Shown: positions 10,556-54,622 of the stretch, piece after piece
Layout: each line of letters begins with the position of its first letter
How positions within the stretch are numbered: position 1 is the first letter of the stretch
DNA from: Haladaptatus litoreus
Lineage (GTDB): Archaea > Halobacteriota > Halobacteria > Halobacteriales > Haladaptataceae
Direction: 5' to 3'
Assembly: GCF_900156425.1 (NCBI RefSeq)
Contig: NZ_FTNO01000005.1
Location: forward strand, 310,001 to 374,000
Length of the DNA stretch: 64,000 bases
Translations under genes and position numbers: made by a program
Notes under the pieces: generated by a model
The model's database searches: none
The model's input: only the letters and a program-made list of their open reading frames with translations
What the model was told of the DNA's origin: nothing

Positions 10556-10783
10556 TTAGGAGTCGGCGTCGAGCGCCGACTCCAGCGACATGAAGAAGGC
10601 GAAGTAGCCGATAACGCCAGCGAACAGGGACAGGTGGTACGCCCACGTCGGTCCCTGAAGAAGGTCGAACAGGGCGGTGACGACCGCGACCCAAATCACG
10701 GCGAAGGCGAGGTCTGCGACCATGCCAGAGCGATGTTCCCTGACGTGGTCGAGTATTGTTCCGGTGAACTGCACGTTACTCAC
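10556..10783 (-). CDS. Small two-helix membrane protein
   Basis: 75 residues from a GTG at 10783, which overlaps the stop of the universal stress gene by 8 nt and suggests coupled translation. Two hydrophobic segments (MVADLAFAVIWVAVVTALF and LSLFAGVIGYFAFFM) are separated by a short loop; the tail is acidic. A longer frame starting at 10882 would run through the stress gene and reads as basic, so it is rejected. It probably forms a unit with the upstream gene. Function unknown. Confidence 0.7.
   Translation of the reverse strand: MSNVQFTGTILDHVREHRSGMVADLAFAVIWVAVVTALFDLLQGPTWAYHLSLFAGVIGYFAFFMSLESALDADS
10559..10583 (-). terminator. Hairpin at the end of the small membrane-protein gene
   Basis: Inverted repeat with 10-bp arms GGAGTCGGCG and CGCCGACTCC around a 5-nt loop, spanning the last codons up to the stop. 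On the minus strand it is followed by a T-rich run (GTTGTTTTGTTGTTATT), which gives a terminator-like layout. Confidence 0.45.
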
Positions 10784-11249
10784 CGTCCTCCGGTTCGGCT
10801 CGCTCGTCCACGACAAGAACCGAGCGATGCGTGGAGCGGAGGACGCGTTCTGTGACGCTGCCGAGGAGCATCCGCCGGACACCGCTCCGACCGTGACTGC
10901 CCATCACGATGAGGTCGATGTCGTAGTCCTCGGCGAAATCCGCGATGACTCGGTGGGGCTGTCCAGCTCGGAAATGCTCTTCGACCGAAAGGTTTCGGTT
11001 TCGACCCTGCTCGACGACGTACTGGGTCGCTTCTCCCGCTCGGTCTTCGAGGTCGTCCATCTCGCCGAATCGACCGGCCCGGATGCGGTCGATTTGCTCG
11101 GTGCCGAGACTCACGTCCATGGCGTCGGTATCGACGACGTAGAGCGTGTAAACCTCGGCCTCGAACTTTTCGGCGATGTCGAGCGCGGATTCGACCGCCA
11201 GTTCCGCCGTTTTGCTCCCGTCCGTGGGAATGAGGATGCGTTCGTACAT
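10776..11249 (-). CDS. Universal stress protein (UspA family)
   Basis: 157 residues. It begins MYERILIPTDGSKTAELA, the usual UspA first strand. It ends with the ATP-binding-type signature GSHGRSGVRRMLLGSVTERVLR, so the nucleotide-binding subclass is likely. It is immediately upstream of a small membrane protein with overlapping frames and may act with it. Confidence 0.93.
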   Translation of the reverse strand: MYERILIPTDGSKTAELAVESALDIAEKFEAEVYTLYVVDTDAMDVSLGTEQIDRIRAGRFGEMDDLEDRAGEATQYVVEQGRNRNLSVEEHFRAGQPHRVIADFAEDYDIDLIVMGSHGRSGVRRMLLGSVTERVLRSTHRSVLVVDERAEPEDGE

Positions 11250-11303
11250 TGATTAGTGGCTTTGGGATTCGTTGATAGTTCGGTGGTGATTATCTATCGG
11301 TAG

Positions 11304-12947
11304 CTAGTCGTCTGCGGGGCTGTGTCCGCTCTTTGCATCGACGATGTCCTCGGCGCTCTGCTGTTGGCCCATCGGTTCGGGGCTGTGACACTGCCGAACG
11401 ATTTGTTTGATTCGCTCCGGCGGTTCGCTGGTCGCCATCGACACGCCGATGGTGACGGCGAACACGATTGGCGTTCCGACGAGTGCAGCCCCGACCGCTG
11501 GGAACACTTCGGCGTAAATCGGCACGAGCGGGCCGGATTCGGTGGCGAGGATGAGTTCGTTGAACACGGCGGCAGTCCAGATGAGGAGTCCGGTCGTCAT
11601 GCCCGCGAGCGCACCCTGTCGGTTGGCGTTCTCCCACCACAGGCCGAGGAAGAACATCGGGAACAACACCAGTCCGGCCAGCGAGAAGGCGAGCGCGACG
11701 AGTTCGCCGACCAGCGCTGGCGGATCGAGTGCGGTAACCGTCACGATGGCCCCCAGCACGATGATGGTGGTACGACCGATGAGCAGTTGTTGGCGCTGTG
11801 TCGCATCGGGGTTGATGATGTTCGTGTAGATGTCGTGCGCCGCGGCCGACGAGGCGGCGATGAACAGCCCGGCGGTCGTCGCAATCGCGGCAGCGATACC
11901 GCCCGCCGCGACGAGGCCGACGAACCACGTCGGGAGGTTCGCGAGTTGCGATGCGAGAACGACGATTACGTCACCCTCTGCGCCGCTCATTCCATTCGCT
12001 CCGTAGACGGGGCCGACATTCTTCGCGTAGAGGTCGGTTCCGAACGCCGCGAACGCGGGGGCGCTCAGGTACAGTAGGCAGATGAAAAACAGCCCCCAGA
12101 CGGTTGACCAGCGAGCGGTTCGCTCGCTTTCGACCGTGTAGAACCGAACCAGCACGTGCGGAAGGCCGCAGGTGCCGACGATGAGCGAGAACGCCGTCGC
12201 AATCCACAGGAAGTAGCTAGTCCCGCTGAACGGTTCGGTGAACTCCGAATTCAGTTGGCTCAACAGCGCGCCGTACTCGATTTGCGGCAGGAAGGTCGAA
12301 TAACCCTGTGTGTAGCCGACGGCGTACAGGCCTGCGAGGAACGCCACTATGAGGATGACGTACTGGACGGCCATGTTTTTCGTCGCTCCGAGCATTCCCG
12401 ACAGCGCGAGATAGCCGACGGTGATTCCCATCATGAGAATCACCATAGTGGCGTAGTCGCCACCGAAGACGTAGATACCGACCAATCCCATGCCGCGGGC
12501 CTGTCCGACCGAGTAGACGAACCCGATGAGAATCGTCGTCAGCGCGCCGATTGCGCGTGCGGTGTCCGAGTTGAATCGGTCGCCGACGAAGTCGGGTGCG
12601 GTGTACTTGCCGAACCGGCGCATCTGCGCGGCCATGAAGATGAGTAGGACGAAGTAGCCGGTTGACCAGCCGACAACGAACGCGAGTCCGTAATACCCCG
12701 ACAGCGCAATGAGTGCGGCCATACCGAGGTACGACGCCGCCGACATCCAGTTGGACCCGATTGCCATCCCGTTTTCGACGTTACCGATGGAACGACCGGC
12801 GACCCACAGGTCTTCGGTGTCGGCCACGCGGAATGCGTATCCGATGCCCAGAAACAGCAGTAACATTCCCGAAACGATGGCGGCCGGGACGATTTTGAAC
12901 GACGCGTTGAGCGCGTCCGGAAGCAGTTGAAGCGGCGTGAAGGTCAT
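11304..12947 (-). CDS. Sodium:solute symporter, large subunit (acetate-permease-like)
   Basis: 547 residues and about 13 predicted helices of the SSS family. It opens with a RVADTEDLWVAGRSIGNVENG segment like that of ActP. Further signatures are AIGSNWMSAASYLGMAALI and GTCGLPHVLVRFYTV. It overlaps by 4 nt the upstream DUF4212 protein, which is the usual small partner of this symporter class. Placed directly after acs, uptake of acetate or another short organic acid with Na+ is the best inference. Confidence 0.9.
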   Translation of the reverse strand: MTFTPLQLLPDALNASFKIVPAAIVSGMLLLFLGIGYAFRVADTEDLWVAGRSIGNVENGMAIGSNWMSAASYLGMAALIALSGYYGLAFVVGWSTGYFVLLIFMAAQMRRFGKYTAPDFVGDRFNSDTARAIGALTTILIGFVYSVGQARGMGLVGIYVFGGDYATMVILMMGITVGYLALSGMLGATKNMAVQYVILIVAFLAGLYAVGYTQGYSTFLPQIEYGALLSQLNSEFTEPFSGTSYFLWIATAFSLIVGTCGLPHVLVRFYTVESERTARWSTVWGLFFICLLYLSAPAFAAFGTDLYAKNVGPVYGANGMSGAEGDVIVVLASQLANLPTWFVGLVAAGGIAAAIATTAGLFIAASSAAAHDIYTNIINPDATQRQQLLIGRTTIIVLGAIVTVTALDPPALVGELVALAFSLAGLVLFPMFFLGLWWENANRQGALAGMTTGLLIWTAAVFNELILATESGPLVPIYAEVFPAVGAALVGTPIVFAVTIGVSMATSEPPERIKQIVRQCHSPEPMGQQQSAEDIVDAKSGHSPADD

Positions 12948-15586: not shown

Positions 15587-17482
15587 TTAGTGTCTATTTG
15601 CGTCCGCCGACCCGCTGTCGTCCTCGAACACTGTATCGAACACTTTCTGTTGTGCCTTCCGGAGGTGGTTGTGAAGCGTCGGCGACGAAACGTCCATCGA
15701 CGCCGCGAGTTCCTCGGCGGTACTCCCGCGGGGCCACTCGAAATATCCGGCGAGATAGGCGGCCCGGAGAACCGTCTGCTGGCGCTCGGTCAACCGGTCG
15801 TGTACCGTCTGCTGGACATTGACCGTGCTCCGGGCGGGTTCGGAAACCTTGCGTTTCGAGCGCAAATCCGTCGCCGGAAACGACCGTTCGACGGTTTCCA
15901 CGACGCGACGAATATCTACCTGCTCCGAAAAAACGCCGGAAACGTCGAGGACACCCGATTCGGCCGACAGTTCGCGGACGGTGCCGCCGCGTTCCACGAG
16001 TATCGTCGCGAGCGAGTCGCCGGAAACGACGAACTCGAAAAGCGCGTCGTCCTCGTAGTCGCGGATGAGACGAGCATCCTCGACAGCGTCCGCGGCGGTT
16101 ATCCTATCGAGAACGTCGCCGACGGCGGCCCCGCTGGCCGTGACGAAGTAGAGCAGCGAATGGTTCGCTATCGGCACCACACCTTCGAGCGCGAACCGAC
16201 AGTCGAGTTCCGCCGAAGCCGAAACGAGAAAGACACCATCGTCGGTGCTGCGCAGCGAAAGCACTACGCCGGTGTCCGCCAACAACAGGCGTTTGCGCGC
16301 AATCGACGTGATAGTTCGGCCGACTCGTCTGCCGACATCGGCGAGGAGCGTCCTGTCTGTCGGCCGAAACGCGTCGTTGGCGACACAGAGCAGTCCGTGA
16401 ACGGTTTCGTTCGACCGGAGCGGCGCGACGGCGAACGAACACCGGGACAGCGGCCCGGTAAGCGGCACTTTATCGACCGACGAAGTAGCCGACATATCGG
16501 CCGACACACCGACCGACGACCCATCGGCTGATGGGTCGTCGGTCACCGCTTCGCCGACTATCGTCACGTCGGGAATCTCGTCTTTCAGCACGCCGATACC
16601 GTCGAGGACGGCATCGAGAACGTCGTCAGTGTTGTTTCGTTCGGGCATAGCACTCGTTCGTGGCGAGCCGTCCGCGTCGCAAATCCAGACGGCGCGGTAG
16701 ATGCCCGAGAGATGGTCGCAAACGGTGCGTTCCACGGCTTCAGTCGTGGACGCCTCCGCGAGGGTTTCGCCCAACTCACCCATACATCGAAGCAGTTCGG
16801 AGCGGCGAGAGTCCGCCCGGCTATTGTGTTCGCGGTGGTCGTGTTCCCAGTGGTCGTCTTTGCAGGGGTCGTGACGGTGTTCGCGGTGGTCGTAACGGCG
16901 GCCGACCCGGCCGCCGTTACGACTCGATTGCCGGTGCGGCTTCGCGAACGCGTCGATAATGTCGGTCGTGGTCGGCCTGTCGAGATACGGGGCGAGGCTT
17001 TCGAGGCTCTTCCACCCACCGACGGTCTGCACCACCCGCGTGTCGATGTCCTCCTCGACGAGGCTCCGCCACGCGAAGTACTTGCGGAGGTCGCGGCAGG
17101 TAACGTCTCGAAGGTCGTCAACGCGGTCTGCGACGTCGCTTACCACCATCTGAACGCGGCGTGGTGACACCGCGATAAACGGGTCGTACCGGGAAACGTC
17201 GTTCGCGGTAGCGAACTTTCGGAGGTCGTGGGCGATTTCGGGCGGGACGTATGCCGCCCGCGTTTCGCCGTCTCCATCTGGGACGGAGAGGAAATAGAAT
17301 CGTTCTCCGTCGCGTTCGCGCTCGGTGATGTCGGCGGGACAAATGCGGGTCAGTTCCGAGGGACGGAGTCCGACGCGTCCTGCCAGCGCCACGACGAGGT
17401 CTTCACGGTAGGTTTCGGTTCCGCGACGGAGACGCTCGTACTCCGGCGTCGTCAGGAACTCCGTGTCTTCCGCACCGCTCAT
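15587..17482 (-). CDS. Bat-type regulator: tyrosine-recombinase-like domain + GAF + HTH_10
   Basis: 631 residues. About 1-180 resemble the catalytic core of XerC/D-type tyrosine recombinases: Arg in GLRPSELTRI (R40), RDLR in place of HxLR (R133), and Tyr in APYLDRP (Y166). The two catalytic His positions appear as Arg and Gly/Trp, so strand cleavage is doubtful and DNA binding more likely. A His/Asp-rich linker (about 197-219) is followed by a GAF-like sensor, the bacterio-opsin-activator middle domain, and a C-terminal HTH_10 (LTERQQTVLRAAYLAGYF). Lying between two acs genes, it probably regulates acetate metabolism. The ATG at 17482 is favoured by a TATA-like box at 17506-17514. Confidence 0.85.
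   Translation of the reverse strand: MSGAEDTEFLTTPEYERLRRGTETYREDLVVALAGRVGLRPSELTRICPADITERERDGERFYFLSVPDGDGETRAAYVPPEIAHDLRKFATANDVSRYDPFIAVSPRRVQMVVSDVADRVDDLRDVTCRDLRKYFAWRSLVEEDIDTRVVQTVGGWKSLESLAPYLDRPTTTDIIDAFAKPHRQSSRNGGRVGRRYDHREHRHDPCKDDHWEHDHREHNSRADSRRSELLRCMGELGETLAEASTTEAVERTVCDHLSGIYRAVWICDADGSPRTSAMPERNNTDDVLDAVLDGIGVLKDEIPDVTIVGEAVTDDPSADGSSVGVSADMSATSSVDKVPLTGPLSRCSFAVAPLRSNETVHGLLCVANDAFRPTDRTLLADVGRRVGRTITSIARKRLLLADTGVVLSLRSTDDGVFLVSASAELDCRFALEGVVPIANHSLLYFVTASGAAVGDVLDRITAADAVEDARLIRDYEDDALFEFVVSGDSLATILVERGGTVRELSAESGVLDVSGVFSEQVDIRRVVETVERSFPATDLRSKRKVSEPARSTVNVQQTVHDRLTERQQTVLRAAYLAGYFEWPRGSTAEELAASMDVSSPTLHNHLRKAQQKVFDTVFEDDSGSADANRH
16511..16544. repeat. Perfect inverted repeat, 15-bp arms, in the Bat-type regulator
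   Basis: Left arm GACCGACGACCCATC at 16511-16525, 4-nt loop, exact reverse complement at 16530-16544. It is inside the coding region and encodes a Ser/Asp/Gly-rich loop (VTDDPSADGSSVG), probably surface-exposed in or beside the GAF domain. Confidence 0.85.
16826..16893. repeat. 17-bp direct repeat encoding a duplicated DHREH motif
   Basis: GTGTTCGCGGTGGTCGT occurs exactly at 16826-16842 and 16877-16893, with degenerate GTGGTCGT copies between. On the minus strand this encodes a linker with seven His in about 21 residues, including DHREH twice. Confidence 0.8.
16889..16923. repeat. Perfect inverted repeat, 16-bp arms, in the Bat-type regulator
   Basis: Left arm GTCGTAACGGCGGCCG at 16889-16904, 3-nt loop, exact reverse complement at 16908-16923. 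It is the longest stem found and overlaps one copy of the 17-bp direct repeat. It encodes SRNGGRVGRRYD at the join of the recombinase-like domain and the His-rich linker. Confidence 0.88.
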
Positions 17483-17505
17483 ATTTCGTATTTCTCTGGA
17501 GAGAC

Positions 17506-17639: not shown

Positions 17640-19574
17640 CTACTCGTTCAGAAGCGATTCGAGTTCCCCGACGACCTCCGGGTTTCGGAGCGCGCTCGTG
17701 TCGCCGAGGTCTTCTCCGTTTGCGATGGCTTTCAGATACCGCCGGACGACTTTGCCCGACCTCGTTTTCGGTAGAGATGGCGTGAACGTGACGGAATCGG
17801 GTGCCGCAATCGACCCGATGGCCGATTCGACGGCCGACTGGACGCGCGTTCTGAGCACCTCGTCGCCCGCGACGTTCGATTCGGGACTGACGAACGCGTG
17901 AACTTTCGACCCTTTCATCGTGTCCGTCCCGCCGACGACGGCGGCTTCCGCGACGCCGTCTACGCCGACGATGGCCGATTCGATTTCCGCCGTACTCAAC
18001 CGACGGCCAGACACGTTGAGCACGTCGTCGGCCCGCCCGAGAAGGTGGAGATAGCCGTCCTCGTCCCGGACGGCGTTGTCGCCGGTGTCGTACTGCCACT
18101 GGCCGTCGGCACGACTCGTTCGGCGGACACCCCATCCAGCGTCTTCGCAAAGCGACCGCGCCATCCCCGGCCACGGGCGAGTGAGAACCAAGCGTCCCGA
18201 TTCTCTGGGCGGGACTTCCTCACCGACTTCGTTGACGACTGTCGCCCCGATTCCGGGGAGTTCCCGTCCGACTGCACCCGGTCGCATTCGGTCTGCACCG
18301 GGGAGCGTCGAAAGGACGACGCCGCCGGTTTCGGTCTGCCACCACGTATCCACGATTGGACATTCGCCGCCGCCCACGTGTTCGCGGTACCAGCGCCACG
18401 CAGTTTCGTCGATGGGTTCGCCCACGGTTCCGAGAAGTCGAAGGCTGGAGAGGTCGTGTTGTTCTGGATATTCGCTTCCCCACTTCATGAACGCCCGAAT
18501 GGAGGTCGGCGCGGTGTAGAACACGTCCACCTCGTTGCGCTCGATGACTTCCCAGAGACGGTTCTTTTCGGGATGGTCGGGCGTCCCTTCGTACAAAATG
18601 GTCGTCGCCCCGAGCGCGAGGGGGCCGTAAACGGCGTAGGAGTGGCCGGTAATCCAGCCGACGTCGGCAGAACACCAGTGCGTGTCCTCCGGCTTGAGGT
18701 CGAACACCGCGTGGCTCGTCCACGCGACGTGTGACAGATAGCCACCGGTCGTGTGCTCGACTAACGTCGGTTCGCCCGTGGTTCCCGAGGTGTAGATGAG
18801 AAACAGAGAATCGTCCGAATCGCGCTCGACGGGGTCGATTTCGACCCCGTCGTGGTCGGCAACGAGGTCGGCGTAGGAACGAGCGTCACCGATTTCCCCG
18901 TCGTCACCGAGTCGATTGACGACGATTTGTTCGACGTCCTGTTCGACGGAGAGACAGGCATTGTCGGCCATGCTTTTGAGATGGAGCGCGGTTCCCCGGC
19001 GGTAGTAACCGTCGCAGGTGACGAGATATTCGGAGTCTGCACCGGCCAACCGAGTTGCGAGCGCGTTGGCCGAAAAACCGGCGAAGACGACGCTGTGGGG
19101 TGCGCCGATTCGCGCACACGCCAGCATCGCAATCGGCAGTTCCGGAACCATCGGCATATAGAGCGTGACGACGTCGTCCTCGCCGACGCCGAGATTTCGG
19201 AGGGCCGCCGCGAACGCATTCACTTCATCCCGAAGTTGGTGGTAGGTGTAGGTTCGCGTCTCCCCGAGTTTTCCTTCCCAAATAAGCGCCGTCTCGTCGC
19301 CGCGACCATTCGCTACGTAGCGGTCGATGCAGTTGTGCGAGGCGTTCAACCGACCGCCGGGAAACCAGCGCGTCGAACCATCGTCGTCCAGTACCGCGTC
19401 GAACGAACGATGCCAGTCCAGAAGTTCGGCGGCGGTCTTCCAGCACGACGGCCATCCCGTTTCGCGGAGGGCGTCGCGGTCGCCCGCGGTGACGTTTGCT
19501 CCGCTAACGAACGACGATGGCGGCGTCTCCCAGTCGCGTCCGTGGGTTGTCTCCTTTCTACTCCCGTTGGCCAT
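17640..19574 (-). CDS. Acetyl-CoA synthetase paralogue
   Basis: 644 residues, collinear with the first acs product: WWQTETGG motif and C-terminal PKTRSGKVVRRYL with the catalytic lysine. The phosphate-binding loop differs: YTSGTTGEPTLVEHTT, where most Acs and the paralogue have a lysine in TTGxPKG. It should still be an acyl-CoA ligase, but activity or substrate (acetate, propionate) may differ. It lies 107 nt after the methylaspartate-cycle operon on the same strand, so it may be read with it or from its own promoter. Confidence 0.88.
   Translation of the reverse strand: MANGSRKETTHGRDWETPPSSFVSGANVTAGDRDALRETGWPSCWKTAAELLDWHRSFDAVLDDDGSTRWFPGGRLNASHNCIDRYVANGRGDETALIWEGKLGETRTYTYHQLRDEVNAFAAALRNLGVGEDDVVTLYMPMVPELPIAMLACARIGAPHSVVFAGFSANALATRLAGADSEYLVTCDGYYRRGTALHLKSMADNACLSVEQDVEQIVVNRLGDDGEIGDARSYADLVADHDGVEIDPVERDSDDSLFLIYTSGTTGEPTLVEHTTGGYLSHVAWTSHAVFDLKPEDTHWCSADVGWITGHSYAVYGPLALGATTILYEGTPDHPEKNRLWEVIERNEVDVFYTAPTSIRAFMKWGSEYPEQHDLSSLRLLGTVGEPIDETAWRWYREHVGGGECPIVDTWWQTETGGVVLSTLPGADRMRPGAVGRELPGIGATVVNEVGEEVPPRESGRLVLTRPWPGMARSLCEDAGWGVRRTSRADGQWQYDTGDNAVRDEDGYLHLLGRADDVLNVSGRRLSTAEIESAIVGVDGVAEAAVVGGTDTMKGSKVHAFVSPESNVAGDEVLRTRVQSAVESAIGSIAAPDSVTFTPSLPKTRSGKVVRRYLKAIANGEDLGDTSALRNPEVVGELESLLNE
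18827..18852. repeat. Perfect inverted repeat, 12-bp arms, in the acs paralogue
   Basis: CGACGGGGTCGA at 18827-18838, 2-nt loop, exact reverse complement at 18841-18852. It encodes DHDGVEIDPVER. The first acs product aligns here without a gap but its DNA has no such stem. Confidence 0.85.
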
Positions 19575-20736: not shown

Positions 20737-21810
20737 CTACTGGTTTCGTTTCTGAATCAGTGCGGTTCGGGTGCCGGAGTACACCGGTTCGTCGCGCTGG
20801 TTGAACGCGTAGTGTTCGAACGTGACTTCCCCGGCCTCCGAGTCGTCCGTGTCCTCGGTAGCGAGGACACGGGTGAATCCATAGATTGTGTCGCCGACGG
20901 TCACGAAGTCGTGAAATTGCTCGTCGCCGTATCCGATTTCGCGGTAGGTTCGTTCGTCCGAGCGTGCGTGCCCGAGCGCGACCGACCGGGTCACGTCGCC
21001 ATACGCAACGATTTCGCCGGATGGCGAGTCGGCCATGTAGTCGTCGTTGTGGTGCTGTTTCGCCGTGTTGAGCGTCACGAGCGGCAGTGTCGCCACCATC
21101 ACGTCGTCCATCGTTCGCCCGCGTTCGTGGCGGTAAGCGACCGCCGCATCACGGTTGGTCGTTCGTTCGTGAGCGTCGCGGAAGTCCTCGAAATACGGGC
21201 CGTCGGGCGAAACGAACTCGCTCGGGAGGCCGGAGTCGTCGGTTTCCCCGGTCGCGCGAGAGTCCGTCGGACTCTCGCGCCCGCCGTCCGTGGCCATCGG
21301 TTCCCGGCGCGGAATCATGTTCGTTCGGGTGTACGACAGGAGGGAGTCGCCCGTTTCGGCGTCGAATCCGGTCGTCTCCCACGTCACGATGCCGTAGTCG
21401 GGACGGGAACTCGATTCGCGTTTGGCTTCGACCATCGATTCGACGCGAATCTCGGTTCCCGGCGCGACCGTCGGGTCGTGAATCGACACGTCGTCTCTGC
21501 CGAGGAAGTAGCCGCCTTTCTCGCTCAAATCCTCGACGCTCGGCCCCATCACGCTGGCGAGCAGGTAATCCGGATGAATCGGGGAGTCGTCGTAGCCAAC
21601 TGCTCGCGCGGCGTCGGACCGCCAGTAGACCGGGTCGTGATTGAGCGTTTGGCTCATCCACAGCTCGTTGGCGTGCGCCGAGAGCGTGAGTCCCGCCGCG
21701 TGTTCGATAGTCTGTCCCTCGCTGAAATCCTCGAAGCAGCTCCCCTTTTCCAGCGTCTCTGCTCGCTCCAGCGCGTTCGAAAACGTTCGTGAGTCTGTCC
21801 AATCTGTCAT
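20737..21810 (-). CDS. mch: Mesaconyl-CoA hydratase (MaoC-like double hotdog)
   Basis: 357 residues with two MaoC/hotdog-type halves: about 20-160 (YWRSDAARAVGYDDSPIHPDYLLASVMGP) and about 215-355 (HHNDDYMADSPSGEIVAYGDVTRS). Between them is a low-complexity acidic linker (about 170-195). It should hydrate mesaconyl-C1-CoA to beta-methylmalyl-CoA in the methylaspartate cycle. Only 3 nt separate it from the methylaspartase gene. Both the linker and a C-terminal loop are encoded by perfect DNA hairpins. Confidence 0.88.
   Translation of the reverse strand: MTDWTDSRTFSNALERAETLEKGSCFEDFSEGQTIEHAAGLTLSAHANELWMSQTLNHDPVYWRSDAARAVGYDDSPIHPDYLLASVMGPSVEDLSEKGGYFLGRDDVSIHDPTVAPGTEIRVESMVEAKRESSSRPDYGIVTWETTGFDAETGDSLLSYTRTNMIPRREPMATDGGRESPTDSRATGETDDSGLPSEFVSPDGPYFEDFRDAHERTTNRDAAVAYRHERGRTMDDVMVATLPLVTLNTAKQHHNDDYMADSPSGEIVAYGDVTRSVALGHARSDERTYREIGYGDEQFHDFVTVGDTIYGFTRVLATEDTDDSEAGEVTFEHYAFNQRDEPVYSGTRTALIQKRNQ
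20847..20872. repeat. Perfect inverted repeat, 11-bp arms, in mch
   Basis: CCGTGTCCTCG at 20847-20857, 4-nt loop, exact reverse complement at 20862-20872. It encodes the loop RVLATEDTDD of mesaconyl-CoA hydratase. Confidence 0.8.
21254..21280. repeat. Perfect inverted repeat, 13-bp arms, in the mch linker
   Basis: GCGCGAGAGTCCG at 21254-21266, one base, exact reverse complement at 21268-21280. It encodes GRESPTDSRA in the acidic linker between the two hotdog halves. Confidence 0.85.
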
Positions 21811-21813
21811 CTG

Positions 21814-23124
21814 TTATCTCCGAGTTTCATTCGGTGTCTCTTTCGTTCCTATCTGCTTCGTCCGTGCTTTGCGGCGGGAAATCGCCCGCCGCATTTCGTT
21901 TTCCATCACCATGTACCCTTCATCGAAGCCCATGCCCGGTTTGGCGAGGGTCTGGGCGGCGTCGGTGGCGAGCGCGACGTGCGCGCACGCTCGCGCGGAG
22001 GTGACCGTTTCGTTGCACGTCCCGCCGAGATACGCGCGAGTGTCGGTACCGTCGCAGTACAGCACTGCTTCCGCGCTTCGCCCGATGCCGCCGAGGTCGG
22101 GCGTCTTGATTTGCACCACGTCGGCCGCGCCCGCGTCCACGAATGCCCGCACGTCCTCGAACGTATTGCACCATTCGTCGGCCACGATGTCCACGTTAAC
22201 GCCCGCGTCGGCGAGTCCGTCGCGGAGTTCGGCCATGGCGTAAATCTGTTCTTCCCGTCCGCCAACGTCCATCGGCCCTTCGACCTGCAACGGGAACGGG
22301 GCCGCGGCCTCCCGGAGGTCGGCGAAGTAGTCCGCGATTTCCGCGCGGTCGTACGGCGGCACGAAAAGTTCCCCGAGGATGCCGTACACGTCAACGTGGA
22401 ATCGCGGGTCGTAGCCCTCCGGGCCGAGTTCGACCGCACGGTTCGAGAGCCACGCCAGATACTCGACCAATCGCTCGCCGTCCGAACCCACCTTCTCGAC
22501 GCTGTTGAATAGACCGTGGGGGAGGACGGGAACGCCCTTCAACAGCATCTTTTCTGCGTTTTTGCGCCGATTGTCGCCCGACTGCCCGAAGACGGGAACC
22601 GGGTCGCTCGCGGGAACAGTCCCGTAGGTGTCGGCCAGAACGTCGGTTTTCGTACCGTGGCGGGCGATTGCGGCGGCGTCGAGCAGCGCCTGCGAGACGC
22701 CGTACCGAATCGCGGTGTGCAGTCGTTCGCCGTCGGTGGTGAGTCCTTCGAGGATGTCCGCGTTGTCGCGGAACTGTCCCGCGGCGCGTCCGACGAGTGA
22801 ATCCGAAACGATTTCTTCGATTACCGGCGCGAACTCCGGCGCTCGAAAGAGCGAATCGCGGCCGCCCGCGCCGGAGTACTGAACTGCGGCACAGTCGCCG
22901 CGAGCGACTGTGCCGTCGGAGAGTTCGAGCAGGACACTGACGGCCTCTCCGGCCTGTCGAACGCGGTCGAAACCGGGCGTCACCGGGTCGCCCCGATACG
23001 CGAATCCGTCCTGTTCTGCGCCCGCCTTGATGGCGCGCTGGTCGTCGAAGAAAAATCCGGAGACGGCGGGCACCGCACGAACTGATTCGATGATTCTCGT
23101 GTGGCCGGATTCGGCGGAAGTCAC
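21814..23124 (-). CDS. mal: Methylaspartate ammonia-lyase
   Basis: 436-residue MAL of the enolase superfamily, converting threo-3-methylaspartate to mesaconate and ammonia. Seen: the N-terminal capping motif GDCAAVQYSGAGGR, QALLDAAA, FHVDVYG with the first metal ligand, LQVEGPMD, VADEWCNT, and QIKTPDLGGIG with the catalytic Lys. Length is typical. It overlaps glmE by 4 nt and is followed by mch, so it is central to the methylaspartate operon. Confidence 0.95.
   Translation of the reverse strand: MTSAESGHTRIIESVRAVPAVSGFFFDDQRAIKAGAEQDGFAYRGDPVTPGFDRVRQAGEAVSVLLELSDGTVARGDCAAVQYSGAGGRDSLFRAPEFAPVIEEIVSDSLVGRAAGQFRDNADILEGLTTDGERLHTAIRYGVSQALLDAAAIARHGTKTDVLADTYGTVPASDPVPVFGQSGDNRRKNAEKMLLKGVPVLPHGLFNSVEKVGSDGERLVEYLAWLSNRAVELGPEGYDPRFHVDVYGILGELFVPPYDRAEIADYFADLREAAAPFPLQVEGPMDVGGREEQIYAMAELRDGLADAGVNVDIVADEWCNTFEDVRAFVDAGAADVVQIKTPDLGGIGRSAEAVLYCDGTDTRAYLGGTCNETVTSARACAHVALATDAAQTLAKPGMGFDEGYMVMENEMRRAISRRKARTKQIGTKETPNETRR
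22887..22915. repeat. Perfect inverted repeat, 12-bp arms, in mal
   Basis: CGGCACAGTCGC at 22887-22898, 5-nt loop, exact reverse complement at 22904-22915. It encodes DGTVARGDCAA, part of which is a conserved MAL motif, so the stem here overlaps functional sequence. Confidence 0.8.
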
Positions 23125-25173: not shown

Positions 25174-26328
25174 ATGCCAGCGCTCGATGACCTGCGCGTT
25201 CTCGACCTCACACAGGTGCTCGCCGGGCCGTACTGCACGATGCTTCTCGCGGATTTGGGAGCCGACGTGGTAAAAGTAGAACGCCCCGGCGGCGACCTCA
25301 TCAGGCCGAACCCGCCGTTCGTCGGGGACGACGACGCCTACGGAGGGTATTTCCAGAGTATCAACCGTGGTAAACGAAGTCTCGAACTCGACCTGACCGA
25401 CGAGGACGACCGCGCGGATTTCCTCCGACTGGCCGAGGACGCCGACGTGGTCGTGGAGAACTTCCGCGCCGGGACGATGGAGAAGTTCGACCTCGAATAC
25501 GAAACCCTCCGCGAACGCAACTCCGAACTGGTGTACGCGTCAATCCGCGGATTCGGCGACCCGCGCACGGGCGAAACCCACCGCCAGGGGCAACCTTCCT
25601 TCGACCTCATCGCGCAAGCCCTCGGCGGCGTGATGCAGATTACCGGCGACGAGGACGGCCCGCCGACGAAAGTCGGGCCGGGAATCGGCGACCTGTTCAC
25701 CGCCACGCTGAACGCCGTCGGCATCCTCGCCGCGCTCCACCACCGCGACCGAACCGGCGAGGGCCAGTACGTCGATACCGCGATGTACGATTCGATGATT
25801 TCGCTGTGCGAACGAACCGTCTATCAGTACTCCTACACCGACGAGGTTCCGAATCGCCGCGGCAACTCCCATCCGACGCTGTTTCCCTACAACGCCTTCG
25901 AAACCGCGGACGGCTACGTCGTCATCGCCGCGTTCGGCGACAACCACTGGACCGCGCTCTGCGAGGCGATGGAGCGCCCCGACCTCGCCGCCGACTATCC
26001 AACGACGGCCGACCGTCTGAAGCACCGAGAGCTGCTCCGTGGGGTAATCGCGGAGTGGACGGCCGTCCACTCCGCTGACGACGTGTGCACCGTCCTCGAA
26101 GGCTCGGTTCCCTGCGCCCCGGTGCAGGACGTGGCCGACGTGTTCGAGGACGACCACGTCGATGCCCGCGACATGCTCGTGAACGTCGAACAACCGGGAA
26201 CGGACGAGTCGGTGACTATCGCAGGGTCGCCCATCAAAATGAGCGAAACGCCGCCGAAACCCGGCACCCGCGCGCCCTTGCTGGACGAACACCGCGAGGA
26301 ACTGCTCGGCGAGGAAAAATCCGTCTGA
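25174..26328 (+). CDS. mct: Succinyl-CoA:mesaconate CoA-transferase (class III, CaiB/BaiF)
   Basis: 384-residue class III CoA-transferase: N-terminal LDLTQVLAGPYCTMLLADLGADVVKVE, the ENFRAGTMEKFDL motif, and the probable catalytic Asp in GIGDLFTA (D173). In this setting it should move CoA from succinyl-CoA to mesaconate, giving mesaconyl-C1-CoA for the hydratase. The family is broad; the specific call rests on the divergent neighbours glmS-glmE-mal-mch-mcl. It starts at the ATG at 25174; another ATG 8 nt upstream is out of frame. Confidence 0.88.
   Translation: MPALDDLRVLDLTQVLAGPYCTMLLADLGADVVKVERPGGDLIRPNPPFVGDDDAYGGYFQSINRGKRSLELDLTDEDDRADFLRLAEDADVVVENFRAGTMEKFDLEYETLRERNSELVYASIRGFGDPRTGETHRQGQPSFDLIAQALGGVMQITGDEDGPPTKVGPGIGDLFTATLNAVGILAALHHRDRTGEGQYVDTAMYDSMISLCERTVYQYSYTDEVPNRRGNSHPTLFPYNAFETADGYVVIAAFGDNHWTALCEAMERPDLAADYPTTADRLKHRELLRGVIAEWTAVHSADDVCTVLEGSVPCAPVQDVADVFEDDHVDARDMLVNVEQPGTDESVTIAGSPIKMSETPPKPGTRAPLLDEHREELLGEEKSV
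26050..26075. repeat. 26-bp perfect palindrome in mct
   Basis: Half-site GCGGAGTGGACGG at 26050-26062 followed at once by its exact reverse complement. It encodes AEWTAVHSA. Confidence 0.85.
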
Positions 26329-41123: not shown

Positions 41124-42353
41124 ATGAAAATCGACGGCGACCGACTACGGGAGGATATCGAAGCGAACGCCGAGTTCGGTGCGCTCGACGTGGAAGGCCA
41201 CGGACGAACCGTTCTCACCGGAACCGACGCGAACCGAAAGGCGCGCGAGTATTTCGTGGAACGACTGGAAGATGCCGGACTCGACGTTCGCGTGGATTCG
41301 GTCGGTAACATCGCGGGACGCTGGACGCCCGAAAGCGCAGACCCGGAATCCAAACCAGTCGCGGCGGGGAGCCACCTCGATTCGGTTCCCGAGGGGGGAA
41401 TCTTCGACGGGCCACTCGGCGTCTACGCCGCACTTGAGGCGGTTCGGGCGATGCAGGACGCCGAAATCGAACCCAGTCGCCCGATAGATGTCGTTTCGTT
41501 CACAGAGGAGGAGGGCCAGCGGTTCGCCGACGGACTCCTCGGGTCGTCCGTCGCGGTCGGAGAGCGGTCGGTGGAGGAGGCACTCGAACTGCGGGACGGA
41601 CGGACGACGCTGGCGGATGCACTCGATACGATGGATTTCGATGGCGAGGGCAGAATCGACGCGAGCGAGTGGGATTCGTGGCTCGAACTCCACGTCGAAC
41701 AGAGCAGGCGACTCGAACGCGCCGACTGCCCGGTCGGGGTCGTAACGACGATTACCGGAATTACGCACTGCGCCGTCGAAGTACTGGGTGAAGCAAATCA
41801 CGCGGGAGCGACCCCGATGCCGGAGCGAACGGACGCGCTGGTCGCCGCGAGCGAATTCGTTCGGGATGTCGAGGACGGGGCGAACGAAGTCGGCGAAACC
41901 ACGGTTGGCACGGTCGGTAAACTCGACGTTCGTCCCAACGCGACGAACGTCGTTCCGGGCGCAGTCGAGATGGGCGTCGATATTCGAGACGTGAGTTATG
42001 ATGCGATGAACGAACTCGTCTCGCTGGCGCGAGACTCGCTTTCCCGCCTCGAATCGGAGCGCGGCGTAGAGACGACTTTCTCCCGCGAGTTCGACCTCGA
42101 ACCGACCGAGATGAGCGCCCGCTGTCGGCGGGCGCTCCACGAAGCGGGGGACGAAGCGAACATCGAACTGCTCGATATGCACTCCGGGGCGGCCCACGAC
42201 ACGATGCACGTCGGAGACGTGACAGACGCAGCGATGCTGTTCGCACGGTCGCGGGACGGCATTTCACATAATCCGGCAGAGTGGACAGAGTGGGGAGACT
42301 GTGCCGCCGCGACGCGAGTGCTCGCTGGCGCACTCACGTCGCTGGCGCGGTGA
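41124..42353 (+). CDS. M20-family amidase/hydantoinase (N-carbamoyl-L-amino-acid hydrolase type)
   Basis: 409-residue metallo-amidohydrolase. Metal-site motifs: GSHLDSVPEGGIFDGPLGV (His, Asp), the SFTEEEGQRF Glu pair, the LHVEQ His, and SGAAHDTMH (C-terminal His). The N-terminal GNIAGRW strand and GHANHAGATPMPERTDAL-like dimerisation part (EANHAGATPMPERTDAL) fit allantoate amidohydrolase or beta-ureidopropionase as well. Start at the ATG at 41124. Confidence 0.9.
   Translation: MKIDGDRLREDIEANAEFGALDVEGHGRTVLTGTDANRKAREYFVERLEDAGLDVRVDSVGNIAGRWTPESADPESKPVAAGSHLDSVPEGGIFDGPLGVYAALEAVRAMQDAEIEPSRPIDVVSFTEEEGQRFADGLLGSSVAVGERSVEEALELRDGRTTLADALDTMDFDGEGRIDASEWDSWLELHVEQSRRLERADCPVGVVTTITGITHCAVEVLGEANHAGATPMPERTDALVAASEFVRDVEDGANEVGETTVGTVGKLDVRPNATNVVPGAVEMGVDIRDVSYDAMNELVSLARDSLSRLESERGVETTFSREFDLEPTEMSARCRRALHEAGDEANIELLDMHSGAAHDTMHVGDVTDAAMLFARSRDGISHNPAEWTEWGDCAAATRVLAGALTSLAR
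42113..42137. repeat. Perfect inverted repeat, 10-bp arms, in the amidase gene
   Basis: GAGCGCCCGC at 42113-42122, 5-nt loop, exact reverse complement at 42128-42137, encoding SARCRRAL. Confidence 0.7.
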
Positions 42354-43939: not shown

Positions 43940-45139
43940 TCACGACCGGGTCGAGGAATCCTCGGAACCGAACTCACCACGGTCACGTTCCTCAAATTTC
44001 GACTTTCTCGCACCACTCTCTTCTCCCGTATCGCTCTCCCCCGTTTCGGACGGCGCGTCGGGCGCGCCCGACGCGCCGGGGAGCATGTCCGGAAACACCA
44101 CCCAGAGGAACTGGACGGCGATGACCATGATGAGCGGGCCGAGAAAGATGCCGTACCAGCCGAAAATCGGCGGGCCGAGGAGGTAGGCGAACATGATGAG
44201 TCCAGTGTGGAACATGCGCCCCGAGAGATACGGGCGGACGTAGGTGCGAATGACGTTGTCGAAGACGAGCGCCATGAAGAGGTAAAAGAAGATGGGAAAC
44301 CAGAGCCGTGTCGGGTCGGTTTCGACTGCAATAATCGCGAGGTAGAGGACGACCACGAGGTAGACGATGGAACGTCCGACCAGTGGAATCAAGGTTGCGA
44401 GTCCGGTCGCAACCGCGACGAGCATCGTCTGTGGAATCGCCATTCCGGGCGGTGCGATGAGATTCAGACCGTTGTAAATCAGTGCGGACGTGATGATGAT
44501 GACGAAGATGGTCAGTGTGTAGCCGAAAAAGACCGAGTTCAGGCCGCGGTCGATGGCGCGAAGGTACTCGTGACTCGTCGTCCCGCTTCCGGCCACGGTC
44601 GTTTCGAACCAACCCGAAATCCGGTCTTCGTCGCGCACCAGAAAGAAGACGAAGACGAGCGCGAGAAACAGGTTGTACGACTGTGTGGCGAACGTCCCGA
44701 CGAAGCCCCCGAACTGGCCGAGTACGTTTCTGATGGACGGTTCGCGGAGCAACTGCGTGGCAGCGTCGTACAACTGCGCTGGGTCGGTCGGAATCGTTCC
44801 CGTCTCGAATCCGGGAAACAGCGTTTGCGCGAGTTGCTCGATGTCGGCGGGTCGAATTGCAGACAGTTGTCCGAACGTGACGACGACGATAGCCCCGAGC
44901 AGGCCCACGAACGGGAGGATGATGAGCGCAAGCGTGAGCAGCGACGCAAGCCCGGGCGACAGTCCTCGATTCCGCAACCGTCTGGCTATCGGCCGGGCGA
45001 CGTAGTACAGAAACAGCCCGAACACTATCCAGCCGAGATACGTATCGAGCGAGACGACGAGAACGATAGCCAGGGCGATTCCGAATAGCCACCAGCTGAT
45101 TCCTACACCGTCAGACTCCCGTTCATCCCAGAGTTTCAC
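43940..45139 (-). CDS. AI-2E-type transporter family protein
   Basis: 399 residues from a GTG at 45139. Eight predicted helices and the family layout: paired N-terminal helices (WWLFGIALAIVLVVSLDTYLGWIVFGLFLYYVARPI), a large central soluble domain, then GLNLIAPPGMAIPQTMLVAVATGLATLIPLVG. The C-terminal tail is acidic. Members export AI-2 in a few bacteria, but in archaea the role is unknown and some act as Na+/H+ carriers. A longer frame to 45412 runs across the upstream HxlR gene in another frame and is rejected. Confidence 0.88.
   Translation of the reverse strand: MKLWDERESDGVGISWWLFGIALAIVLVVSLDTYLGWIVFGLFLYYVARPIARRLRNRGLSPGLASLLTLALIILPFVGLLGAIVVVTFGQLSAIRPADIEQLAQTLFPGFETGTIPTDPAQLYDAATQLLREPSIRNVLGQFGGFVGTFATQSYNLFLALVFVFFLVRDEDRISGWFETTVAGSGTTSHEYLRAIDRGLNSVFFGYTLTIFVIIITSALIYNGLNLIAPPGMAIPQTMLVAVATGLATLIPLVGRSIVYLVVVLYLAIIAVETDPTRLWFPIFFYLFMALVFDNVIRTYVRPYLSGRMFHTGLIMFAYLLGPPIFGWYGIFLGPLIMVIAVQFLWVVFPDMLPGASGAPDAPSETGESDTGEESGARKSKFEERDRGEFGSEDSSTRS
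44051..44078. repeat. 28-bp perfect palindrome in the AI-2E gene tail
   Basis: Half-site CGGCGCGTCGGGCG at 44051-44064 followed by its exact reverse complement. It encodes GASGAPDAP in the C-terminal tail. Confidence 0.85.
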
Positions 45140-47473: not shown

Positions 47474-47493
47474 CAGTTTCGCGCGCGAAACTG
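47474..47493. repeat. 20-bp perfect palindrome, intergenic
   Basis: CAGTTTCGCG followed by its exact reverse complement, about 53 nt before the small membrane-protein ATG at 47546. It might be an operator. Confidence 0.6.
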
Positions 47494-50458: not shown

Positions 50459-50470
50459 TCGTCTCGGGTT

Positions 50471-51943: not shown

Positions 51944-52741
51944 CTACCCCCGCCGACTGCCGGGTTGCGGGTCAACGTGCGGTTTCGCCATCAAATCCGA
52001 AAATCGCGCGTCGTCCACCCAGTCGAGCAGTTTCACGAGTTGCTCCGTCGCGGCCTCAAAGATTTGTTCGCCCTTTTCGGGCGTTGCGTCGGTTTGGTCG
52101 CCGAGGACGCCGTTTTCGGTGTTGTCGATGGCGTCGTAGTAGTTGCGCGCGCCGTGAATCATGAAGTTCCCCTCCCCAAGGTTAGAGAGGCCGCCGTCCC
52201 GAGCATTTTCAAGTTGGTCAGTTCTGACCAACTCGCCCGCGATGTGCATAATCATCGCCGTCTCCTTCGGCCCGCCGTGGGGGCCGTTGTGCTCGAACAG
52301 GTCGGAGACGAGGTCGGGAATCGACTCGTCCCACATCCACTCGACTGCGAAGGCGACTTCGTCCTGACGAAGTCGCCGACCAACCTCGCGCAGGTGTTGC
52401 ATGTTCCCGCCGTGGGCGTTGACGTACACGACGCGGTCGATGCCGTGGTACGTCAAATTGCGCGTGAAGCTTTCGACGTAGTCGCGGAACACGCGCGCAT
52501 CGACCCACATCGTTCCGTGGAACTGCTTGTGGTGCGGGCTGACGCCGATGTTTATCGTCGGCGTGCAGAGGTAGCCCGCTCGGTCTGCGGCCTCGCGGGC
52601 TAACGCCTCCGCGATGAGGTGGTCGGTCGCAAGCGGCAGGTGCGGGCCATGCTGTTCGGTCGAACCCAGCGGCACGACGGCGACGGATTCTTCGGCGACG
52701 TAGTCACCCAGTTCCGGCCACGTCTTGTCGGCGAGGTACAT
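51944..52741 (-). CDS. Creatininase-family amidohydrolase
   Basis: 265 residues. Metal-site motifs are intact: PLGSTEQHGPHLPLATDHLI (Glu, His, Asp), HKQFHGT, VNAHGGNM, and EWMWDE. Family members include creatininase and a formamide hydrolase of archaeal flavin synthesis (ArfB), plus mycofactocin-type peptidases. The sequence does not decide between them. Two perfect DNA inverted repeats lie inside the gene. Confidence 0.9.
   Translation of the reverse strand: MYLADKTWPELGDYVAEESVAVVPLGSTEQHGPHLPLATDHLIAEALAREAADRAGYLCTPTINIGVSPHHKQFHGTMWVDARVFRDYVESFTRNLTYHGIDRVVYVNAHGGNMQHLREVGRRLRQDEVAFAVEWMWDESIPDLVSDLFEHNGPHGGPKETAMIMHIAGELVRTDQLENARDGGLSNLGEGNFMIHGARNYYDAIDNTENGVLGDQTDATPEKGEQIFEAATEQLVKLLDWVDDARFSDLMAKPHVDPQPGSRRG
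52212..52233. repeat. Perfect inverted repeat, 10-bp arms, in the creatininase-family gene
   Basis: AGTTGGTCAG at 52212-52221, 2-nt loop, exact reverse complement at 52224-52233, encoding ELVRTDQLE. Confidence 0.75.
52352..52377. repeat. Perfect inverted repeat, 11-bp arms, in the creatininase-family gene
   Basis: GGCGACTTCGT at 52352-52362, 4-nt loop, exact reverse complement at 52367-52377, encoding RRLRQDEVA. Confidence 0.8.
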
Positions 52742-53295: not shown

Positions 53296-54401
53296 CAGGC
53301 GAGTTCCTCGTCGGCGTGCTCCGCGACGTACTGTTCGACTTTCGGGCGCGCTTCCTCGCGCTTTTGCTGGTGGTCGCGCAGGAAGAGTTCCAGTCGGTCT
53401 TTGGCAATCGCTTTCAGTTCGCCCGAAAGCATCGCGCCGGATTCGTACTCCGTGCGAATCCGGCGCAGTTCGTCGTCGTCCTCCACGAGGTGGTACGCGA
53501 GCAGTTCGAACACCATGTCCTCCTCGACGTTCGCGCCCTTCTCGCGGTGTTCCTCGATACTGACCCGGCCGCCGGTTTTCGCCTCGTCGATTTTGCGCTT
53601 CGCGTCCGCAATCGAATCGGTGAGGGCGATGTAGCTTTTCGGGTCGGACGAACTCATCTTCCCGCCCTGCAATCCGCGCATGAATCTATGATACGTGCTC
53701 GCGGGCTTTAGGTACGACGCATCGCGGTAGCGCGACGCCACGTCCCGCGTCAGTCTAACGTGCGGGTCTTGGTCGATACCGACCGGAACGACCGTCGGTT
53801 TCGGCCCGCCGTGTTCCGGCGATTGCGGGCGAAGGATGTCCGCGTACTGGGTCAGCGCCGACACCATCTTTCCGGGGTCTGCGTTGCCGTAGGTCGCCTC
53901 GAACTCGTTTTGCGTGACGTGCTTAGCGAACAGTTTGCTTCGAACCTGATGGTCGTTGCCCGCCTGCGACTGGAAGTAGAAATCCGTCGAATCGAGGTCT
54001 AACCCCAGCGCGACGTAGTTCAGCAGGTACTCCTCGACCACGAGTTCGCGGGCGTCTTCGAGCGACATCTCTCTGGTCGCGTAGGACTCGATGTCCGCCG
54101 CACAGAGCGTGAGTTCTGCGCCCATGTCCTGAAACATGAGCACCTGATCGACCACGCCGAGGTGGCCGAAGTGGAACACCCCGGAGGGCATGATGCCGGT
54201 CATCATGGCGAAGGGGTCGCCCTCGTCGCGAGCATCCAGTACGGTGTCTAAGTCGCGGTGTCCGAAGACGATGTTCCGCCGAACGAGGCGGTTGTCCGGC
54301 AGTCGATCTGCGAGGTCGGCAATCGGTTCGATGCCGAACTGTTTCATCGTCGCCTCGTAGTCGGTGATTTCGACGTCGCCCCACGGGTCGATTTCGGGCA
54401 T
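53295..54401 (-). CDS. trpS: Tryptophan--tRNA ligase
   Basis: 368-residue class I aminoacyl-tRNA synthetase. The HIGH-like motif is PSGVFHFGH and the KMSKS-like motif is GGKMSSSDPKSY. The GNDHQVRSKLFAKHV and PVGIDQDPHVRLTRDVA segments match archaeal/eukaryotic TrpRS. It charges tRNA-Trp. Haloarchaea can carry two TrpRS-like genes, and this may be the shorter one. Confidence 0.88.
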   Translation of the reverse strand: MPEIDPWGDVEITDYEATMKQFGIEPIADLADRLPDNRLVRRNIVFGHRDLDTVLDARDEGDPFAMMTGIMPSGVFHFGHLGVVDQVLMFQDMGAELTLCAADIESYATREMSLEDARELVVEEYLLNYVALGLDLDSTDFYFQSQAGNDHQVRSKLFAKHVTQNEFEATYGNADPGKMVSALTQYADILRPQSPEHGGPKPTVVPVGIDQDPHVRLTRDVASRYRDASYLKPASTYHRFMRGLQGGKMSSSDPKSYIALTDSIADAKRKIDEAKTGGRVSIEEHREKGANVEEDMVFELLAYHLVEDDDELRRIRTEYESGAMLSGELKAIAKDRLELFLRDHQQKREEARPKVEQYVAEHADEELA

Positions 54402-54592
54402 CGCTATCGCTCACCTCCATAGTGCTCCTTCGCAGTCGTTCGCGGTCGCTCTATCGGTACAACAGAAGTCGTGTTACTGTGCCGCGGTCGGCCAAAATCG
54501 ACCACCGGCAGTGGCAGATGGGTACATGCCGGTTTCTACTCCAGCGGTAGCGGGCAAAAACGTTTCGTCCGGACGACAGCACGCTGGCAGAT

Positions 54593-54622
54593 TCGGTTCG
54601 GCCGCTTAAGCGGCCGAACCGA
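54593..54622. repeat. 30-bp perfect palindrome between trpS and a winged-helix gene
   Basis: Half-site TCGGTTCGGCCGCTT at 54593-54607 followed at once by its exact reverse complement. It ends 29 nt before the ATG at 54652, within the 250-nt divergent region. It could be an operator for the winged-helix protein; a terminator is less likely at this place. The rest of the region shows no gene. Confidence 0.85.

What the first reader, a model, noticed from the sequence alone, without database searches (positions are those of the whole stretch)
10559..54622. Unusual density of perfect, unrelated inverted repeats, mostly inside genes
I read at least 16 perfect inverted repeats with arms of 10-16 bp and spacers of 0-5 nt: 10559, 16511, 16889, 18827, 20847, 21254, 22887, 23154, 26050, 37404, 42113, 44051, 47474, 52212, 52352 and 54593 (start positions). 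Twelve have arms of 11 bp or more. A rough estimate (64,000 positions, six spacer lengths, 4 to the power 11) expects about 0.1. The arms share no common sequence, so they are not one repeat family. Thirteen are within frames, often in loop or linker codons. A plausible cause is template switching at quasi-palindromes, which turns imperfect stems into perfect ones. Alternatives are selection for mRNA or cruciform structure.
Basis: partly seen in the sequence, partly recalled or inferred. Interest (0 to 1): 0.8.

Follow-up and report, generated by a model that had tools for sequence, protein, structure and literature searches.

The report
Lineage-specific burst of perfect DNA hairpins
Some salt-loving archaea carry far more tiny perfect DNA hairpins inside their genes than their relatives do, and the hairpin loops flip between species, which points to a known copying error, template switching, that has run unusually hot in certain lineages.

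Summary
In detail: all 16 perfect inverted repeats (IRs) are where stated, plus two missed. The window has 14 IRs with arms >=11 bp and spacers 0-5; an order-3 Markov model gives about 0.4. In genes: 13, against a mean of 0.33 and a maximum of 3 in 200 synonymous-codon shuffles.

The window is an ordinary sample of its genome (genus Haladaptatus). Arm>=12 IRs run at 11.4/100 kb over 464 kb, 0.35/100 kb in 56 loci of other haloarchaea, and none in 120 kb of the same genome's contigs C5 and C6. Within the family the trait is patchy.

Best explanation: scars of replication template switching. Spacers are exactly inverted between species in 19 of 92 differing comparisons (null 1.95), rising from 0.14% of all comparisons at 5-bp arms to 13% at >=12-bp arms. 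Changed pairs stay complementary in 73 of 108 cases. No significant G-U preference; arms still break at about three quarters of the flank rate.

Against: one-arm rewriting was not detected, and most stems seem older than the nearest species split. The cause is unknown.

The parts
10559..10583 (.). perfect IR, arm 10, spacer 5, intergenic
   Evidence: perfect in G002, 7/10 pairs in G004
16511..16544 (.). perfect IR, arm 15, spacer 4, in a bat-like (GAF/BAT/HTH_10) regulator gene 15587-17482 (-)
   Evidence: A-T/G-C compensated pair against G004
16889..16923 (.). perfect IR, arm 16, spacer 3, same gene; two double changes that keep pairing on the G000 branch
18827..18852 (.). perfect IR, arm 12, spacer 2, in an AMP-binding (acyl-CoA synthetase type) gene
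20847..20872 (.). perfect IR, arm 11, spacer 4, in the mesaconyl-CoA hydratase gene
21254..21280 (.). perfect IR, arm 13, spacer 1, in the mesaconyl-CoA hydratase gene
22887..22915 (.). perfect IR, arm 12, spacer 5, in the methylaspartate ammonia-lyase gene
   Evidence: perfect in G002
23154..23179 (.). perfect IR, arm 11, spacer 4, in the methylaspartate mutase E gene; perfect in G000, G002 and G004
26050..26075 (.). perfect palindrome, arm 13, spacer 0, in a CoA-transferase III gene; 8 of 13 pairs broken in G004
37404..37430 (.). perfect IR, arm 13, spacer 1, in a sulfatase gene; four right-arm differences and none in the left arm against G004
42113..42137 (.). perfect IR, arm 10, spacer 5, in gene 41124-42353 (+)
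44051..44078 (.). perfect palindrome, arm 14, spacer 0, in an AI-2E-type transporter gene; 10 of 14 pairs broken in G002
47474..47493 (.). perfect palindrome, arm 10, spacer 0, intergenic
52212..52233 (.). perfect IR, arm 10, spacer 2, in a creatininase-family gene; spacer TT here, AA in G004 (exact inversion)
52352..52377 (.). perfect IR, arm 12, spacer 2, same creatininase-family gene
54593..54622 (.). perfect palindrome, arm 15, spacer 0, intergenic; stem also present in G002 (12 of 15 pairs) and G004 (14 of 15) with changed central bases

Best explanation
The IRs are footprints of short template switches during DNA synthesis. A polymerase stalled in one arm of a weak inverted repeat jumps to the partner arm, on the nascent strand or on the opposite strand, copies some 10-18 nt and returns. 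This leaves matched arms and often an inverted spacer. The process acts across the resident replicons, in genes and between them, and afterwards the stems decay by ordinary mutation. It has run far hotter in some Haladaptatus and g2 (Halorussus-like) lineages than in other haloarchaea. SHOWN: the excess, its patchy distribution, spacer inversion that depends on arm length, pairing-preserving double changes, continuing decay. INFERRED: that the polymerase is the agent; that the lineage difference is a rate difference set by a trans-acting factor (unknown).
For: Excess over Markov, mirror and codon controls. Exact spacer inversions in 19 of 92 differing comparisons (160 comparisons in all, duplicates removed), null mean 1.95 and maximum 8 in 5000 draws (before removing duplicates 19 of 98, null 2.04); the 19 come from about 13 distinct sites by my reading. 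Inverted share of all comparisons by arm length, duplicates removed: 5 bp 9 of 6437 (0.14%), 6-7 11 of 2529 (0.43%), 8-9 1 of 245 (0.41%), 10-11 6 of 60 (10%), >=12 12 of 90 (13.3%); with spacers >=3 only: 0.12%, 0.26%, 0 of 201, 6.7%, 7.8%. Seven polarised double changes at 6 of 95 sites, about 0.6 expected at a uniform flank rate. Where both sides of a pair differ, 73 of 108 stay complementary. 17 of 48 G000 stems (arm >=12) have >=3 unpaired positions in G002 but 0 of 20 the other way round (Fisher p 0.0015), while simulated point mutation gives 0.2 such gains per 480 kb. In G000 density is alike in and out of genes (11.3 and 12.0 per 100 kb). The same anatomy (arms 10-16, spacers 2-5, spacer flips) is documented in yeast (PMC8604942, parts 1 and 2 of 3 of the Results read).
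Against: The one-arm test is at its null (12 of 73, expected 11.25; dispersion p 0.10). Most stems seem older than the G000/G002 split (30 of 41). At sites perfect in two genomes the third branch shows few double changes (0, 0 and 3, with 12, 5 and 29 single ones), so concerted change is not seen there. Double changes of any kind are not much commoner than in flanking control pairs (for example 4.8% v 3.2% against G004); only their complementarity stands out. Broken pairs are somewhat fewer than the flank rate predicts (47 v 63.2 in all; Poisson p 0.02), which leaves room for weak maintenance. No repair or polymerase family tested tracks the trait. Strand bias and replication dependence could not be tested.
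Confidence: 0.77

Rival explanations
1. Selection for RNA hairpins or DNA cruciforms with a cellular function keeps the stems perfect and leaves the loops free to vary.
For: Arms change less than flanks on the focal branch (1.4% v 3.9%, biased by choosing perfect stems). In cross-ascertained sites broken pairs are 47 v 63.2 expected (p 0.02). Complementary double changes occur. Two window stems are perfect in all three genomes. In G002 and G004 density is higher outside genes (7.4 v 5.0 and 10.5 v 5.3 per 100 kb).
Against: The deficit of broken pairs is small. No significant G-U over A-C preference on the mRNA strand (133 v 112, p 0.20). In G000 density is alike in and out of genes. Only 3 of 80 stems are followed by a T-rich run. 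Selection on stems does not by itself invert loops.
Confidence: 0.08
2. A dedicated enzyme (a hairpin-opening nuclease, recombinase or hairpin-writing element gained by some lineages) makes or flips the stems, rather than ordinary polymerase error.
For: Patchy distribution among near relatives. None in 120 kb of C5/C6. Pairing ends near arm position 16-18 in three genomes. G136, the richest genome, has an extra NurA, Rad50-hook and SbcD-like set on contig C3.
Against: Arms share no sequence. No reverse transcriptase match in 28 genomes. The Rad50-hook match over cut-off is in G136 alone and extra NurA copies also occur in G128 and G131, which have no arm>=12 IR in their 20 kb. Template switching alone gives the same products in yeast.
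Confidence: 0.1
3. One past burst of IR formation in an ancestor, with no present activity; the differences are only unequal decay. (This overlaps the best explanation: it differs in timing, so the odds do not add to one.)
For: 30 of 41 G000 stems look ancestral; arms keep breaking.
Against: Spacer inversions and double changes map to the G000 branch, and one double change and one inversion to the G002 branch; 4 of 41 G000 stems have two or more pairs newly fixed.
Confidence: 0.15
4. Chance or base-composition effect.
For: None beyond G+C-rich arms (0.677).
Against: Markov, mirror and codon-shuffle controls; the other haloarchaea sampled, of higher G+C on average (0.643 v 0.601), largely lack it.
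Confidence: 0.01

Closest known systems
Template switching between IR arms in Saccharomyces cerevisiae genes (PMC8604942; abstract and two of three parts of the Results read)
   Different: There it is events in 39 genes across strains, with arm homogenisation shown; here many stems per 100 kb, lineage-specific, in archaea, and one-arm homogenisation not shown
Quasipalindrome template-switch mutation in E. coli (PMC7202029; start of the abstract and passages seen)
   Same: A short switch at an imperfect IR yields a perfect one
   Different: Measured at chromosomal reporters, not as a genome-wide accumulation; no lineage contrast in what I read
Excess of small IRs in prokaryotes (Ladoukakis and Eyre-Walker 2008, seen only as cited in PMC4060949; passages of PMC4060949 read)
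   Same: Excess of IRs in coding DNA, template switching proposed
   Different: That excess is small and concerns 6-9 bp arms; PMC4060949 reports the palindrome excess to be weaker in archaea, though some bacterial genera are extreme; here arms are 10-19 bp and about 100-fold commoner in genes than in the other haloarchaea sampled
Coding palindromes in Nematomorpha mitochondria (PMC6649704; abstract read)
   Same: Many perfect IRs inside protein genes of one lineage
   Different: Up to 284 bp, in mitochondria, presented as a compromise between protein function and secondary structure

Membership tests
Template-switch (quasi-palindrome correction) footprints | Spacer exactly inverted between relatives at perfect or near-perfect arms | tested here: met
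   19 of 92 differing spacers, null 1.95; far commoner at arms >=10 than below
Template-switch (quasi-palindrome correction) footprints | Several substitutions confined to one arm that copy the other arm | tested here: inconclusive
   12 of 73 one-sided, 11.25 expected; dispersion p 0.10; flanks differ by about 10-16%, so decay in the relative blurs the test
Template-switch (quasi-palindrome correction) footprints | Short spacer, with an arm length sufficient for foldback | tested here: met
   Excess mainly at spacers 0-7 and arms 10-17
Template-switch (quasi-palindrome correction) footprints | Dependence on replication, strand bias, effect of exonuclease or mismatch-repair mutants | not testable with these tools
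   Needs experiments
Selected RNA hairpins | Compensation with tolerance of G-U pairs on the transcribed strand | tested here: not met
   GU 133 v AC 112, p 0.20; complementary double changes do occur, so only the G-U part fails
Intrinsic terminators | Stem followed by a T run, between genes | tested here: not met
   3 of 80 with a T-rich run; 65 of 80 in genes
MITE or other dispersed repeat | Shared arm sequence among copies | tested here: not met
   2 of 3160 pairs share a 12-mer, random 0.85

The most novel reading that the evidence does not exclude
A trans-acting factor, gained or lost repeatedly within one family of haloarchaea, sets a genome-wide programme or error mode that writes and flips perfect 14-20 bp hairpins on resident chromosomes but spares recently arrived replicons, so that close relatives differ by one to two orders of magnitude in hairpin load and in how fast proteins gain multi-residue changes.
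Probability: 0.25. Interest if true: 0.8.

Novelty: new variant of a known kind. Interest (0 to 1): 0.58.

Why it matters
What sets the rate of template switching in cells is, as far as I know, studied mainly with reporters and mutants. Here nature offers closely related species with and without a heavy load of such scars, including a pair that a single-gene tree joins (G003 with, G006 without). Gene-content comparison and mutation-accumulation lines could therefore find the controlling factor. The changes also rewrite codons: 17 of 21 compared segments with an exactly inverted spacer (>=2 nt) lay in genes and differ by 1 to 7 residues over the whole IR, so such events could mimic positive selection.

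Tried and rejected
Candidate causes searched over 28 genomes of the family (9 Haladaptatus, 18 of genus g2, 1 of g47), compared by eye: PolY, MutS, NucS, Rad50 zinc hook, PolB, NurA, reverse transcriptase and SbcD/Mre11-like. None follows the trait by presence or absence; sequence and expression were not compared. The Rad50 hook model misses the Haloferax control, and no SbcD match passes its cut-off, so these two say little. Exonuclease VII large subunit was searched over 116 genomes of the class: no match over cut-off in G000, but only 32 of 116 have one, so it is not specific.

One-arm rewriting test: null. Codon phase and place in gene: no strong pattern. Chance, a repeat family and terminators were rejected as stated above; RNA selection is disfavoured.

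Small print. Trait calls in the 18 sampled family genomes outside Haladaptatus rest on one 20-kb stretch each. In the merged set G001+G005+G006+G008 there are 3 arm>=12 IRs in 320 kb, all in G005; one search puts none of the three in genes and one search puts two in genes, because my gene caller was trained on different sets. The 56 'other haloarchaea' loci all surround one gene (methylaspartate ammonia-lyase), so they sample one neighbourhood, not whole genomes. Sites with gaps in the IR were dropped: 11 of 106. In one search, 24 of 177 IRs had one relative and 3 had none. Searches count some sites twice, because a site seen from two genomes or in reverse orientation was not merged; one search repeats the spacer, double-change and arm-length counts with duplicates removed and agrees. 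The G-U count was not repeated without duplicates. The spacer null assumes uniform substitution.
Full report
OBSERVATION. All 16 listed inverted repeats are present at the stated coordinates; two more (53094 and 57161) meet the same criterion, giving 18 with arms >=10 bp and spacers 0-5. Against order-3 Markov sequence the window has 18 v 1.4 (arms >=10), 14 v 0.38 (>=11) and 10 v 0.19 (>=12); mirror repeats with arms >=10, the same geometry without complementarity, give 0. The excess is weaker at spacers 6-10 and little or none beyond. In predicted genes, 13 IRs with arms >=11 compare with a mean of 0.33 and a maximum of 3 in 200 synonymous-codon shuffles.

CONTEXT. The window is G000:C7:310001-374000 of a 4.67-Mb genome in 11 contigs. 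The genes hit are mostly metabolic, among them methylaspartate-cycle enzymes.

THE WINDOW IS NOT SPECIAL, THE LINEAGE IS. Arms >=12, spacer 0-5, per 100 kb: window 15.6; own contigs C2 14.1 (156 kb), C3 15.0 (20 kb), rest of C7 13.3 (60 kb); own contigs C5 and C6 0 in 120 kb, where even arms >=10 are absent (Poisson probability about 2e-10 at the arms >=11 rate of the others). Larger sets: G000 53 in 464 kb, G002 26 in 480 kb, G004 30 in 480 kb. Other haloarchaea: 4 in 1147 kb, of which 1 is in genes in 961 kb of coding DNA, against 44 in about 389 kb in G000, roughly a hundredfold. Bacterial loci: 1 in genes in 272 kb of coding DNA. C5 and C6 have low gene density (0.58 and 0.47) and lower G+C.

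PATCHY DISTRIBUTION. Within Haladaptatus G001, G006 and G008 have none with arms >=12 in 80, 80 and 60 kb, G007 1 in 76 kb, G005 3 in 100 kb, and G003 3 in 80 kb plus 1 in 40 kb more. A single-gene tree of 6 of the 9 genomes joins G003 with G006 and places G001 with the rich species. Of 17 g2 genomes (probably Halorussus, by inference from the named loci; 20 kb each) G136 has 9, G127 3, G125 2, G141 2, G130 1, G132 1 and 11 have none. In G136 nine of the ten IRs have arms of 14-20 bp, which looks like an undecayed set (inference).

ANATOMY. Stems reach 10-17 bp, at most 19 in G000; pairing falls to background near arm position 16-18 in all three Haladaptatus genomes. Density in and out of genes is 11.3 and 12.0 per 100 kb in G000, but 5.0 and 7.4 in G002 and 5.3 and 10.5 in G004. 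Arms are unrelated to each other.

COMPARISON BETWEEN SPECIES. IRs from the three genomes were aligned to the other two (150 of 177 with both relatives). Spacers change fastest: 11.9% on the focal branch, v 3.9% in flanks and 1.4% in arms; the arm figure is biased low because stems were chosen for being perfect. Spacer changes include exact inversions such as TTC/GAA, CGC/GCG, CGA/TCG, CTGT/ACAG and TT/AA. With duplicates removed they are 19 of 92 differing comparisons (160 in all), null 1.95, maximum 8 of 5000, from about 13 distinct sites by my reading (undeduplicated 19 of 98 v 2.04). By arm length, the inverted share of all comparisons is 0.14% at 5, 0.43% at 6-7, 0.41% at 8-9, 10% at 10-11 and 13.3% at >=12; with spacers of 3 or more 0.12, 0.26, 0, 6.7 and 7.8%. 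This step between arms of 9 and 10 is the strongest evidence, and matches the yeast report, where inversions were seen only at arms longer than 9 bp.

ARMS. Seven double changes at 6 of 95 sites map to a focal branch; about 0.6 are expected at a uniform rate. Pairs changed on both sides stay complementary in 73 of 108. Results against a simple story: changes are not confined to one arm (12 of 73 v 11.25 expected); at sites perfect in two genomes the third branch shows 0, 0 and 3 double changes, no clear excess; double changes of all kinds are not much commoner than in flanking control pairs. 30 of 41 G000 stems with arms >=12 are already perfect in a majority ancestor, and 4 of 41 show two or more pairs newly fixed. 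17 of 48 G000 stems have >=3 broken pairs in G002 and 0 of 20 G002 stems have >=3 broken pairs in G000. This fits more making in G000 or more loss in G002; the ancestor analysis favours loss in G002 for most and making in G000 for a few.

LITTLE SIGN OF MAINTENANCE. Stems perfect in two genomes break in the third at 13 v 17.2, 5 v 9.9 and 29 v 36.1 mismatched pairs expected from the flanks (13, 12 and 19 sites), 47 v 63.2 in all, a modest deficit (p 0.02) that coding constraint, arm homogenisation or weak selection could each give. GU is not significantly favoured over AC on the mRNA strand (133 v 112, p 0.20). So the stems look mainly like mutational scars.

CONSEQUENCES. 17 of 21 compared segments with an exact spacer inversion lie in genes; they differ by 1 to 7 residues over the whole IR, not the spacer alone (which counts some sites from both sides). 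In the window the creatininase-family gene carries TT where G004 carries AA.

CAUSE. Eight repair or polymerase families do not separate rich from poor genomes by presence.

LITERATURE. Yeast shows the same anatomy at far lower number (PMC8604942; abstract and parts 1 and 2 of 3 of the Results read). Loop inversion and compensatory change by template switching are described for RNA genes (PMC8794818; abstract and passages). The prokaryote-wide IR excess is described as small for 6-9 bp arms and the palindrome excess as weaker in archaea (PMC4060949 passages). A search for haloarchaea with inverted repeats and template switching found 0 papers; Haladaptatus with palindrom- found 3, and their listing shows no such subject (papers not opened). 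Subscription papers are mostly not held, so this is no proof of absence.

VERDICT. A real, strong and lineage-specific feature; known mechanism, unusual intensity, cause open.

Noticed in passing
G000 contigs C5 and C6 (L017-L022): Two contigs of about 400 kb with no IRs of arm >=10 in 120 kb sampled, low coding density and lower G+C; they may be recently acquired or decaying megaplasmids.
   Followed up: partly
G136:C3:27-5324: The genome richest in IRs carries an extra NurA match, a Rad50-hook match in a 936-aa frame and an SbcD-like match close together on contig C3.
   Followed up: no
G004:C1, about 1.34-1.42 Mb and 1.89-1.97 Mb (L038-L045): 78,151 bp identical at 100% in two places about 552 kb apart; either a very recent large duplication or an assembly artefact in NZ_CP085301.
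   Followed up: partly
window 15587-17572 (-): Bat-like GAF/BAT/HTH_10 regulator with a borderline Phage_integrase match at residues 138-198 (27.7 bits, cut-off 27.1).
   Followed up: no
L046:1734-1983 (G005): Four IRs start within 250 bp (arms 10, 10, 14, 14), unlike the scattered pattern elsewhere.
   Followed up: no
L057:17297 and 17349 (Haloarculaceae archaeon H-GB1-1): Two IRs with arms 12 and 13 some 50 bp apart, outside the Haladaptatus/Halorussus group.
   Followed up: no
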